Source: Lysobacterales bacterium (GTDB taxonomy: Bacteria > Pseudomonadota > Gammaproteobacteria > Xanthomonadales > SZUA-5). From it: 64,000 bases of DNA. This document shows, piece by piece, positions 36,419-44,977 of the stretch. The notes below the pieces were generated by a model. That model was not told where the DNA came from and made no database searches. It saw only the letters and a list, made by a program, of their open reading frames with translations. Made by a program: the position numbers and the translations under genes. The DNA lies in assembly GCA_019187485.1 (NCBI GenBank), contig JABAQR010000016.1, positions 25,964 to 89,963 on the forward strand, given 5' to 3'. Position 1 is the first letter of the stretch. Every line of letters begins with the position of its first letter.

Positions 36419-37242
36419 TTTCCGTCGTGATATTGACGAAAGACGAAGAGATCAATCTGCCCCGTTGCCTCGCGAGTGTGGCGTTCAGCAACGATGTAGT
36501 GCTGGTGGATTCGGGCAGCCAAGATCGGACGCTGGAGATTGCTCGTTCCGCTGGAGTTCGAGTATTCACGCGGAGCTTCGACTCATTCGCCAAGCAGCGC
36601 AACTTTGCCTTGGAGCAAGAGTTGCGGAACGATTGGGTGCTTCATCTTGATGCTGATGAAGCCGTCACACCGGAGCTGGAGCGCGAGCTGATGGAAGTGG
36701 TGCGGTCTCCAATGCAATTCTCCGCGTTTCAAGTGGCATCTCGCCTGATATTCATGGGACGGTGGCTCAAACATGCCGGGATGTATCCATGTTACCAGGT
36801 TCGGTTCGGACGGAAGGATACACTGAGTTTCGTGGATTTCGGTCATGGACAACGTGAACTCGTGAAGCACGGCAAAGTTGGCACGCTGCGAGCTCCTCTC
36901 GAACATCATAACTTCTCGAAGGGAATTGCAGATTGGTCCAGGAGGCATTTGGGCTATGCAAGAACTGAGGCACATCTGTATGCGGGTGTTCCGGATGCCA
37001 TCGACTTCGGCGGTCTGATCTCGACCGATCGAGTAATTCGGCGAAGGACCTTGAAAAATATCTCTCTTCGCATCCCATTTCGCCCAGTATTGCGCTTTCT
37101 TTATGTCTACGTGGCGAAACTCGGATTTCTTGATGGCCTCGCGGGGATTCGGTATGCCTACTTGATGTGCTGGTACCAATTGATGATCGATCTTTGTGTT
37201 GAGGAGATCCAGGCCCAGCGGCTCCAAAAGGAGCTCCGATGA
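36415..37242 (+). CDS. Glycosyltransferase family 2 protein (WaaE/KdtX-like)
   Basis: A 275-residue GT2 enzyme. ISVVILTKDEEINLPRCLAS, VVLVDSGSQDRTLEIA, FAKQRNFALEQ and WVLHLDADEAVTPELE are the donor and DxD motifs of the WaaE/KdtX group, which adds a hexose to lipopolysaccharide core. HHNFSKGIADWSRRHLGYA near residue 162 is also typical. It overlaps both neighbours by four bases, so the kinase at 37239 is translationally coupled to it. Confidence 0.86.
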   Translation: MISVVILTKDEEINLPRCLASVAFSNDVVLVDSGSQDRTLEIARSAGVRVFTRSFDSFAKQRNFALEQELRNDWVLHLDADEAVTPELERELMEVVRSPMQFSAFQVASRLIFMGRWLKHAGMYPCYQVRFGRKDTLSFVDFGHGQRELVKHGKVGTLRAPLEHHNFSKGIADWSRRHLGYARTEAHLYAGVPDAIDFGGLISTDRVIRRRTLKNISLRIPFRPVLRFLYVYVAKLGFLDGLAGIRYAYLMCWYQLMIDLCVEEIQAQRLQKELR

Positions 37243-38171
37243 TAGCCGCATGGCATTATGTGTTTGCCGGGTTGCGTGTCGAATCTGATCGTCCTTTGGC
37301 ACCGATGTCAGCGTGTGAAGACGTTGCTATTGACCGTATCGATTTGCGGCTGAGGAGGCGCAGTCGACCATGGATGAAGGCAGTCATCAAGGACGGACCT
37401 CCTCGACATTGGATCAAGCGCCTCGACAGGGACCGGGTTGTTCTTGCGATTGAAGACTTTGGCGTGATTTGTGCCAGCCCCGGTCTGCTCGAATGGGCGA
37501 TTCGGCATGAAGCCGACTGGAGGGAGTTCCAAGGATACCTCTTGGGAATTGGATTGGGAATTTCTCTTTACCAACTGGATGTAATACCTTTCCACGTCTC
37601 TGGATGTGTTGTCGGTGGTGGCGCCATCGCTTTTTCCGGAACAAGTGGCGCGGGGAAGTCTTCGATGGCCTATGCACTCGCATCGGCTTTTGGCGGCGAG
37701 ATTGTGAGTGATGACATGACCAGCTTCCAATGTGCCGAGAAGGGAGCGTTCATGTTCCCCGGAATCTCCGAAGTTCGATTGTTTCGTGAGGTGGTTTCAG
37801 AGTTTCGGGAAGACAGGCTTCGCGCACGGCGGGATGAGCGTACTCAGAAAAAGTATCGAATGATTGGCGCACGACGGGCGCTTCGACCGGTGGAGGTTCG
37901 TGCTTTGGTGTGGATAGAACTGGAGCGGGGCTCGGACTTTGGTATCCGGCGCGTGGTGGCTGGTGAACGACTCCGCAGGTGGCGTGATTCTCTTTACGCA
38001 GCTGATTTTGGAGTGCATCTTGGTCGACCTGCAAGGGTGCAAACTGAAGTCTTGGCGCTCGCTTCGAAGGTTCCGGTCTACGTAATGACTAAGGGTTTGC
38101 GGGTGACGTCGGTTCGTTCAGACTGTGAACAGTTGTTGGGAACGATCGAGCGGGACTTGGCATCAAAATAA
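37239..38171 (+). CDS. HprK-related kinase (lasso-peptide-locus type)
   Basis: A 310-residue P-loop protein. The N-terminus (AWHYVFAGLRVESDRPLAPM) is the barrel-like start shared by HPr-kinase-like proteins in lasso and HPr-rel systems. IAFSGTSGAGKSSMAYALAS near residue 131 is Walker A, and GGEIVSDDMTSFQC near 152 holds the Asp pair after it. It lacks the HPr kinase signature of Gram-positive regulators. In characterised lasso clusters such kinases phosphorylate a C-terminal Ser of the precursor. It is the first gene of the plus-strand RiPP operon, and a paralogue lies at 43863. Confidence 0.8.
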   Translation: MIAAWHYVFAGLRVESDRPLAPMSACEDVAIDRIDLRLRRRSRPWMKAVIKDGPPRHWIKRLDRDRVVLAIEDFGVICASPGLLEWAIRHEADWREFQGYLLGIGLGISLYQLDVIPFHVSGCVVGGGAIAFSGTSGAGKSSMAYALASAFGGEIVSDDMTSFQCAEKGAFMFPGISEVRLFREVVSEFREDRLRARRDERTQKKYRMIGARRALRPVEVRALVWIELERGSDFGIRRVVAGERLRRWRDSLYAADFGVHLGRPARVQTEVLALASKVPVYVMTKGLRVTSVRSDCEQLLGTIERDLASK

Positions 38172-38186
38172 TCGAGGAGCGAGCAA

Positions 38187-38453
38187 GTGACGCGGTTAAT
38201 TCGGAAACAGTCGGTCATCTCGGCAAAACTGGATGGGGACCTCGTGCTGTTGAGTCTGGAGCGCGACATGTACTTTGGGAGCAAGTCAGTGGGGGCCATG
38301 ATCTGGGAACTTCTGGAAGTTCCTCGCACTGTGGAAGAGATTGTCGGGATTCTGCAAGCCAGCTTTGATGTCGACACCGACCAATGCTTGGAAGACGTGC
38401 GTTCGTTTCTGAATGCGCTGGTTTCAGCAGAGCTCGTCGAGTGGTCATCCTGA
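38187..38453 (+). CDS. PqqD-like RiPP recognition element protein (lasso B1)
   Basis: An 88-residue protein made of one PqqD/RRE domain. LIRKQSVISAKLDGDLVLLS, MYFGSKSVGAMIWELLEVPR, TVEEIVGILQASFDVDTDQ and FLNALVSAELVEW follow the usual beta-strand and winged-helix order. RRE domains bind the leader of a ribosomal precursor peptide. A GAGGAGCGAGC Shine-Dalgarno precedes the ATG by a few bases. It is followed, with a 13-base overlap, by a B2 protease gene, the standard split B1-B2 arrangement of proteobacterial lasso clusters. Confidence 0.87.
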   Translation: MTRLIRKQSVISAKLDGDLVLLSLERDMYFGSKSVGAMIWELLEVPRTVEEIVGILQASFDVDTDQCLEDVRSFLNALVSAELVEWSS

Positions 38454-38902
38454 TCCCAAGAGTGAAAATCAACTTGCCGAGGTTGAAGTTGGACTGCAAG
38501 GCCTTATTGTGTCTGGCAATTGCTCGGTTGTTGGTGCTGTGCCCCACGCGTCTTTGGCTCAAGTTCCTGGGGTGGTCGGTCGTGCCGTTCGGGGTGAGCC
38601 GCGAGGTCTGCGGAGAATTGCAATCCCGTGTCGCGTTTGCCGCCGAATCTGTTCGAATCATCTCGAGGAAAGTGCCTTGGAGAGCGGATTGTCTTCCCCA
38701 GGCTGTTGCCTTGCTGCTTCTCGTTGGTCCAGCGCGAGGCAGTTGCGAGATTGTTCTCGGAGCAGCGAAGGGGGTTTCGGGAGAAATGTCTGCGCACGCG
38801 TGGGTTCGAGTGGGCAGTCAGGTTGTTCTCGGGAGGAACGAAATCTCGCGGTTTCAGCCAGTGGCCTTATTAGTGGCAGGTGGAGTTGAAGGTAGATCTT
38901 GA
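38441..38902 (+). CDS. Lasso-type leader peptidase (B2, transglutaminase-like)
   Basis: A 153-residue protein of family PF13471. The catalytic Cys is in PWRADCLPQAVALLLL (C84), and the His in MSAHAWVRVG (H119); the third acidic residue is not obvious in this copy. B2 proteins cut the leader from the precursor while bound to B1. The GTG at 38441 lies within the end of the B1 gene. The protein is at the usual length of B2 enzymes. Its C-terminus overlaps the glycosyltransferase ORF by 23 bases. Confidence 0.85.
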   Translation: MVILIPRVKINLPRLKLDCKALLCLAIARLLVLCPTRLWLKFLGWSVVPFGVSREVCGELQSRVAFAAESVRIISRKVPWRADCLPQAVALLLLVGPARGSCEIVLGAAKGVSGEMSAHAWVRVGSQVVLGRNEISRFQPVALLVAGGVEGRS

Positions 38903-44741: not shown

Positions 44742-44750
44742 GCAGTGTTC

Positions 44751-44779
44751 AAAAAAAACGCCGGCCCAGGGGCCGGCGT
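44751..44779 (-). terminator. Intrinsic terminator/attenuator after the candidate precursor
   Basis: Read on the minus strand, an eight-base-pair GC stem (CGCCGGCC/GGCCGGCG, loop of four) is followed directly by eight T residues. It sits between the precursor stop (44828) and the kinase start (44741). It should end most transcripts after the small gene and let only part of the polymerases continue, the usual way to make more precursor than enzyme. Confidence 0.88.
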
Positions 44780-44827
44780 CGGTATCAGGTCGTATCCGTC
44801 TGGAACGCTCGTACGCTAGTCAGAAAC

Positions 44828-44977
44828 TCAGCCAGAACGACGCTTCGGCCCGCCCATGACTGTGAAAAGCTCGTAGACGTCGGTCGTTGCACCGCTCGCC
44901 GTCCGGCCGATCGGCAACTCTGCCAGTTCCGGCTTCTCCCACTTCCGCTTCGATTGTGTGTTCTGCGTGTTCTGCAC
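44828..44977 (-). CDS. Candidate lasso/RiPP precursor peptide
   Basis: A 49-codon gene with a GTG start. A GAAGGGGG Shine-Dalgarno lies a few bases upstream and a promoter-like sequence ends at about 45008. The product begins MQNTQNTQSKRKWEKPELAE, giving the aromatic-x-K-P-x-L leader motif (W13 to L18) that B1/RRE proteins bind. LPIGRTA follows, then the presumed core from S28: SGATTDVYE, LFTVMGG, PKRRSG. Thr26 would be the usual Thr at -2. Glu36 is at core position 9 (or 8 if the core starts at Gly29), as needed for a macrolactam. The penultimate Ser is a possible kinase target. It lies in a third frame, distinct from longer overlapping minus-strand frames that carry no family motifs. No database comparison was possible. 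Confidence 0.72.
   Translation of the reverse strand: MQNTQNTQSKRKWEKPELAELPIGRTASGATTDVYELFTVMGGPKRRSG

What the first reader, a model, noticed from the sequence alone, without database searches (positions are those of the whole stretch)
37239..44977. A cryptic lasso-peptide-type cluster with an unusual set of tailoring enzymes
The plus-strand operon has the three lasso elements B1 (38187), B2 (38441) and C (40292), plus an HprK-like kinase, a GT41 glycosyltransferase and a PRMT-like methyltransferase. The convergent minus-strand operon has the candidate precursor, a second kinase and a sulfotransferase. I know of lasso clusters with a kinase, but not of one that combines two kinases, a GT41 enzyme, a sulfotransferase and a methyltransferase, and lies inside a surface-polysaccharide locus. 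If real, it could make a phosphorylated, glycosylated or sulfated lasso peptide.
Basis: partly seen in the sequence, partly recalled or inferred. Interest (0 to 1): 0.95.

Follow-up and report, generated by a model that had tools for sequence, protein, structure and literature searches.

The report
Heavily tailored lasso-peptide gene cluster
Inside a bacterial surface-sugar locus lies a gene set predicted to make a knotted "lasso" peptide, with two predicted kinases, a sulfotransferase, a glycosyltransferase and a methyltransferase that would likely decorate it; the core genes and a precursor recur in a related genome, so the cluster is probably genuine, but no product has been seen.

Summary
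Two convergent operons at 37.2-45.0 kb encode B1, B2, C and a 49-aa precursor. A leader profile built without the window or its nearest relative finds that precursor at E=4.7e-7 (25.5 bits; next window frame 9.0; best of 20 shuffles 10.7). A same-family genome has precursor, B1, B2, C, two kinases, sulfotransferase and a methyltransferase in one run. Relatives of GT41, C and MT1 (45-50% identity) each list a contig of 40,200 bases. Corrections: kinase plus sulfotransferase is not rare (38 of 79 related loci); the "PRMT-like" MT1 lacks both PRMT hallmark loops. A second methyltransferase, an RRE-like domain fused to a PRMT that keeps both loops, lies 8 kb downstream; relatives sit beside lasso genes in four other genomes. 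Across related clusters a tyrosine near the core's C-terminus goes with the sulfotransferase, but the window's core does not follow that rule. Lasso clusters in capsule loci were published for Bacilli in 2026. Verdict: a real, predicted lasso pathway; new variant of a known kind; product untested.

The parts
44828..44977 (-). precursor A, 49 aa, GTG start: MQNTQNTQSKRKWEKPELAELPIGRTA / SGATTDVYELFTVMGGPKRRSG
   Evidence: hold-out leader HMM E=4.7e-7; AAGGGGG just upstream of the GTG; window A matches the G003 frame at 3.6e-5
44831..44896 (-). predicted core peptide, 22 aa; ring predicted Ser1-Glu9 (or Gly1-Glu8 if cut one residue later)
   Evidence: inferred from Thr at -2 and the acidic residue at 8/9, by comparison with the precursors
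44757..44780 (-). terminator-like hairpin between A and K2
43863..44741 (-). K2, HprK-related kinase
   Evidence: TIGR04352 1.6e-12, below its cut-off; Walker A and SDD kept
43006..43866 (-). ST, sulfotransferase
   Evidence: PF00685; best PDB relatives Teg12, Teg14, StaL and SULTs
42961..42993 (.). 13-pair hairpin between the convergent operons
37239..38171 (+). K1, second kinase, HprK/PEPCK fold
   Evidence: AF2 pLDDT 90; Foldseek PEPCK 8e-8, HprK 4e-5; Walker A and SDD kept
38187..38453 (+). B1, leader-binding RRE
   Evidence: PF05402 1.5e-17; TbiB1 1.9e-14 and lasso PqqD-family chaperone 9x90 1.9e-10 in PDB
38441..38902 (+). B2, leader peptidase (frame open from 38384)
   Evidence: NF033537 above cut-off; Cys, His and Trp of the active-site stretches invariant in 45 of 45 aligned B2
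38880..40295 (+). GT41 glycosyltransferase without TPR
   Evidence: PF13844; SPINDLY and OGT relatives in PDB; short relative P0132
40292..42016 (+). C, lasso cyclase (asparagine-synthetase-like)
   Evidence: PF00733, NF033535 hit; relatives in 79 loci
42004..42954 (+). MT1, PRMT-fold methyltransferase lacking both PRMT hallmark loops
   Evidence: PRMT7 1e-15 in PDB; alignment
52510..53706 (-). MT2, RRE-like domain fused to a PRMT that keeps both hallmark loops; probable pathway member 8 kb away
36187..37242 (+). family 2 glycosyltransferase gene directly upstream, overlapping K1 (start not settled)
   Evidence: PF00535 1.5e-14
45118..46233 (+). gmd, GDP-mannose 4,6-dehydratase, divergent from A (start inferred)
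   Evidence: PF16363 5.7e-155
46199..47179 (+). fcl-like epimerase (GDP-fucose synthase by family and position)
   Evidence: PF01370 4.8e-64; the name is recalled

Best explanation
The island encodes a predicted lasso-peptide pathway with an unusually large tailoring set, placed inside a surface-polysaccharide locus. Shown by sequence: a precursor with a WxxPxL...T leader, RRE B1, protease-like B2, cyclase-like C, two HprK-type kinases, a sulfotransferase, a GT41 enzyme and a methyltransferase. Inferred: B1 would hold the leader; B2 would cut after ..RTA; C would close a Ser1-Glu9 ring in SGATTDVYELFTVMGGPKRRSG; a kinase would phosphorylate a Ser near the C-terminus (penultimate Ser21); the sulfotransferase would likely act on the only phenol, Tyr8, or on another hydroxyl; the GT41 enzyme would put a sugar on Ser/Thr, perhaps fucose because gmd and an fcl-like gene lie next door; the role of MT1 is open; the RRE-PRMT fusion at 52.5 kb likely methylates Arg19/Arg20. 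None of the nine island genes is a transporter by family search.
For: Precursor found by hold-out profile. G003, same family: MT-K-ST-B1-K-B2-C-A in one run, beside a heparinase-like and a sugar-oxidoreductase gene. P0132 (GT41, 45%), P0002 (C, 45%), P0015 (MT1, 50%): each from one contig, listed length 40,200. B1, B2, C family hits. ST never without K in 79 loci; 36 of 39 ST genes follow a K on the same strand (permissive distance test) or share a frame with one; 6 such fusions, in both domain orders. GT41 beside C or precursors in L054, L063, L071. Best PDB relatives of ST are Teg12, Teg14 and StaL, which recall says sulfate glycopeptide antibiotics. RRE-PRMT near lasso genes in 5 of the 8 genomes that have the long form, window included. 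GC is 0.52-0.57 from 34 to 44 kb, over the lasso genes and the sugar genes just upstream.
Against: B1 and C score below the cut-offs of the narrow NCBIfam lasso models. The core ends in Ser-Gly, while 99 of 109 precursors end in Ser. Its Tyr lies 14 residues from the end, not 3-5, and the G003 core has no Tyr although G003 has ST. The two same-genus genomes (one only 77% complete) show no C, and C is found in 3 of 398 genomes of the order at E<=1e-45. G003's methyltransferase is of the MT2 type, not MT1, and no GT41 was found in its stretch. The 40,200-base contig could not be viewed. MT2 is not in the island; it overlaps a hemL gene, and two of its long relatives (G004, G007) have no lasso genes near.
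Confidence: 0.78

Rival explanations
1. B1/B2/C are a true lasso set, but GT41 and MT1 serve the polysaccharide and sit in the operon by chance.
For: The operon is coupled to a sugar gene upstream and the locus is rich in glycosyltransferases. No GT41 or MT1 was found in the G003 stretch.
Against: GT41 overlaps B2 and C, and MT1 overlaps C. Their closest relatives share the contig length of the closest C relative. Several PDB relatives of GT41 are named peptide O-GlcNAc transferases. GT41 is next to C or A in 3 of 79 other loci.
Confidence: 0.14
2. The product is a linear or otherwise non-lasso RiPP; C closes no lasso.
For: A linear polyphosphorylated RiPP family shares leader motif, RRE and kinase with paeninodin-like clusters and co-occurs with them in Bacilli (PMC13381572, passages read).
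Against: That family is described as lacking the cyclase; here C and B2 are both present and an acidic residue stands at 8/9 of the core.
Confidence: 0.07
3. The enzymes act on a glycan and the precursor is a chance frame.
For: C is asparagine-synthetase-like and the locus is for polysaccharide.
Against: Precursor 25.5 bits against at most 10.7 in 20 shuffles; a related precursor lies next to C in G003; B1 and B2 belong to families that bind and cut leaders.
Confidence: 0.03
4. The sulfotransferase target is not Tyr but a Ser/Thr, the sugar or the phosphorylated tail (a rival on this one step only).
For: L063, L078, L086 and G003 have ST and no Tyr in the cores found; L030 and L059 have it in one of two; the window's Tyr is off the usual place. 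ST never occurs without K.
Against: In ST-bearing loci and genomes 71 of 87 precursors have a Tyr 2-6 residues before the last residue, against 3 of 22 without ST; two of those three are on contigs cut within about 4 kb of C.
Confidence: 0.45

Closest known systems
Paeninodin-type phosphorylated lasso clusters
   Same: WxxP leader, separate B1/B2, C, HprK-like kinase; sulfotransferase genes noted beside some (PMC8498205, PMC4289311, passages read)
   Different: two kinases, GT41 and methyltransferases; core ends in Ser-Gly; convergent operons; no transporter among the island genes
Lasso and LPP clusters in capsule loci of Bacilli (PMC13381572, 2026)
   Same: lasso genes with kinase inside polysaccharide loci
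   Different: those carry an NTP transferase and, for LPP, a signal-peptidase-like enzyme; the word sulfotransferase does not occur in that main text; GT41 and PRMT were not looked for in it
Pseudomycoidin
   Same: phosphorylated, sugar-bearing lasso peptide (as told in PMC8498205, passages read)
   Different: sugar added by a nucleotidyltransferase, not GT41; no such gene among the island genes, but NTP_transf_5 lies near lasso genes in L108 and L135
Teg12/StaL sulfotransferases
   Same: best PDB relatives of ST
   Different: act on glycopeptide antibiotics (recalled), not on RiPPs

Membership tests
lasso peptide gene cluster | precursor with [Y/W]xxPx[L/I/V]...T leader and acidic residue at 7-9 of the core | tested here: met
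lasso peptide gene cluster | RRE B1 | tested here: met
   PF05402; TbiB1 and 9x90 in PDB
lasso peptide gene cluster | B2 protease with Cys and His | tested here: met
   NF033537 above cut-off; Cys and His invariant in 45 of 45
lasso peptide gene cluster | C cyclase of the asparagine synthetase type | tested here: met
   PF00733; NF033535 1.8e-23
lasso peptide gene cluster | scores above the NCBIfam lasso B1 and C cut-offs | tested here: inconclusive
   66.8 of 80 and 83 of 525 bits; these are narrow 'exception' models
lasso peptide gene cluster | threaded product | not testable with these tools
   needs expression and MS/NMR
paeninodin-type lasso | WxxP leader and HprK-like kinase | tested here: met
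paeninodin-type lasso | C-terminal Ser as phosphate acceptor | tested here: not met
   core ends in Ser-Gly; so not filed as a strict member
PRMT (MT1, 42004) | double-E loop and HW loop (recalled hallmarks) | tested here: not met
   D..N and YG in their places
PRMT (MT2, 52510) | double-E loop and HW loop (recalled hallmarks) | tested here: met
   window MT2 has both; E..E in 8 of 8 aligned, HW in 6 of 8
RRE (MT2 N-terminal domain) | RRE-like fold (not function) | tested here: met
GT41 | Glyco_transf_41 domain | tested here: met
   117.5 bits, cut-off 25
GT41 | TPR repeats, as in OGT and SPINDLY | tested here: not met
   no TPR family hit; closest relative is also short, 483 aa

The most novel reading that the evidence does not exclude
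A single lasso peptide that is phosphorylated, sulfated, fucosylated by a GT41 enzyme and arginine-methylated by an RRE-guided PRMT, made as part of a surface-polysaccharide programme: a bacterial peptide carrying four modification types usually associated with eukaryotic proteins, and the first RRE-PRMT fusion.
Probability: 0.2. Interest if true: 0.88.

Novelty: new variant of a known kind. Interest (0 to 1): 0.66.

Why it matters
Sulfotransferase genes have been noted in lasso clusters since 2014 without a known product, and three searches of the open-licence library showed no sulfated lasso peptide in the listings and passages I saw. The kinase-sulfotransferase fusions and the C-terminal Tyr pattern turn that open question into a direct test. 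The RRE-PRMT fusion would, if active, bring arginine methylation into RiPP chemistry; two searches for it returned no paper. The window offers one compact cluster with predicted masses to look for.

Tried and rejected
Second precursor in the window's own genome: a search with A found only A itself. Lasso genes in the 20 kb upstream of the window on the same contig: none. Viral contigs: no relative of C. GT41 as a marker in 274 class genomes: 52 with a match, ordinary GT41 proteins mostly with longer frames, not useful. MT1 in 299 phylum genomes: 11 with a match at E<=1e-12, the window's own included, the others at 22-29% identity. L086's match to MT1 lies about 4.6 kb past C and is distant; not taken as the same system. 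Arginine methylation by MT1 set aside because both hallmark loops are absent. A sequence profile of B1 did not detect the MT2 N-terminal domain. In the class sample, MT2 matches outside the window lacked that domain (2 of 274 genomes). B2 has no sequence relative in PDB; K2 has only weak ones. Leader-profile hits were not found in L138 and L139; in L135 a YxxPxL frame upstream of K is a candidate by eye only (part of that output was cut). Grouping clusters by C identity weakens the link of ST with any Tyr in the core: p 0.0002 at 60%, 0.04 at 50%, 0.38 at 40%, so lineage may explain part of it. For the Tyr tables I added by eye 10 precursors that the profile scored at E 0.07-0.5 and removed by hand the frames L041:19305-19409 and L075:2985-3224; 26 loci of records OY282xxx (24 with precursors) were counted as ST-bearing by genome, not by locus. 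Precursors were found in 68 of 82 places searched. Searches gave paper listings; papers opened: PMC8498205, PMC4289311, PMC13352647, PMC13381572 (passages only).
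Full report
Observation. The island at 37.2-45.0 kb holds two convergent gene runs. Plus strand: K1, B1, B2, GT41, C, MT1, with overlaps between all neighbours except K1 and B1 (15 bases apart), and K1 starting inside the stop codon of an upstream family-2 glycosyltransferase. Minus strand: precursor A, a terminator-like hairpin, K2, ST. Around it lie glycosyltransferases, a hexapeptide transferase, GDP-mannose dehydratase, an fcl-like gene and a WecA-like transferase. 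GC is 0.52-0.57 from 34 to 44 kb; the rest of the window runs at 0.60-0.73 in 2-kb bins, save 22-24 kb at 0.535. So the lasso genes and the sugar genes just upstream probably arrived together (inference).

Is the precursor real? I built a leader profile from precursors of other genomes, leaving out the window and its nearest relative G003. In the window's 1135 frames of 25 codons or more it ranks the 44831-45022 frame first at 25.5 bits (E 4.7e-7); the next has 9.0 bits, and the best of 20 mononucleotide shuffles has 10.7. The leader reads KRKWEKPELAELPIGRTA, the WxxP form that PMC13381572 (passages read) calls nearly invariant in paeninodin-like lasso precursors.

Relatives. C is rare: 13 proteins at E<=1e-20, its own included, among 7998 scored candidates. 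A scan of named genomes found 196 stretches encoding a relative, of which the best gave 79 loci (25-34% identity). In these I found, at bit cut-offs of my own, K in 67, B1 in 53, B2 in 46, ST in 38, two or more K in 12, GT41 in 3; some loci are cut by contig ends, so absences are uncertain. ST never occurs without K; 36 of 39 ST genes follow a K on the same strand within a permissive distance or share a frame with one. Six single frames hold both domains, four K-ST and two ST-K. So kinase plus sulfotransferase is a recurrent pair, not a peculiarity of this window.

Nearest cluster. G003, in the same family, has MT (RRE-PRMT type), K, ST, B1, K, B2, C and A in one run, beside a heparinase-like and a bidomain sugar oxidoreductase gene. 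By tree distance one of its kinases is nearest to K1, and the other shares the nearest neighbours of K2. Its precursor leader, KAWQTPKLEELSVRATESG, is clearly related (phmmer 3.6e-5). GT41 and MT1 were not found there. For those, the closest proteins P0132 (GT41, 45%, also short), P0015 (MT1, 50%) and P0002 (C, 45%) each come from one contig with a listed length of 40,200. I infer one contig; it could not be opened. Of the two genomes of the same genus neither shows C.

Sulfotransferase. ST's best solved relatives are Teg12, Teg14 and StaL. In 109 precursors from 68 places, a Tyr 2-6 residues before the last residue occurs in 32 of 45 from ST-bearing loci, 39 of 42 from the OY genomes (ST-bearing by genome) and 3 of 22 from loci without ST; by locus, OY set aside, 17 of 24 against 3 of 20 (Fisher 2.7e-4). 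With relatedness grouped, the looser any-Tyr test weakens from p 0.0002 to 0.38 as grouping coarsens. The window is an exception: its Tyr is 14 residues from the end; G003 has none. The idea that ST sulfates Tyr is therefore stronger for the wider group than for this cluster.

Kinases. K1's model has the HprK/PEPCK fold. K1 and K2 keep Walker A and the SDD motif. In characterised systems the C-terminal Ser is phosphorylated (PMC8498205, passages read); 99 of the 109 precursors end in Ser; the window's ends Ser-Gly, as does one other.

GT41. Catalytic family match, no TPR; PDB relatives are OGT and SPINDLY. SPINDLY is an O-fucosyltransferase (recalled), and the neighbouring gmd and fcl-like genes would supply GDP-fucose (inference). 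The sugar could as well be GlcNAc.

Verdict. It differs from the known clusters I could compare in its combination of tailoring enzymes and in the RRE-PRMT link. No step of modification is shown.

Noticed in passing
window 52510-53706 (-): RRE-like domain fused to a PRMT with intact hallmark loops, overlapping a hemL gene (53703-55079); homologues beside lasso genes in G003, G008, G334 and G005.
   Followed up: yes
L041, L047, L069, L072, L085, L095: Single frames that hold an HprK-like kinase and a sulfotransferase, in both domain orders, in lasso loci.
   Followed up: partly
records OY282353, OY282455, OY282519, OY282378 (among L027-L098): Uncultured Pseudomonadales or gammaproteobacterial genomes with four to six C loci each and many precursors; L055 alone shows five with near-identical leaders and different cores.
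   Followed up: no
L054, L063, L071: GT41 genes (554-616 aa frames) beside C or precursors in Roseofilum, a Chloroflexi MAG and Adonisia; the cores found by the profile there carry no Tyr.
   Followed up: partly
L108:9616-10734, L135:1399-2568: NTP_transf_5 nucleotidyltransferase genes near lasso genes in polysaccharide loci of the same order, as in pseudomycoidin-type clusters.
   Followed up: no
L107:12439-13356 (-): The second kinase of G003 has SDH where K1, K2 and the other G003 kinase have SDD; possibly altered activity.
   Followed up: no
window 8649-9843: Two short frames that look by eye like PIN-domain toxins of toxin-antitoxin pairs, between sugar genes; not tested.
   Followed up: no
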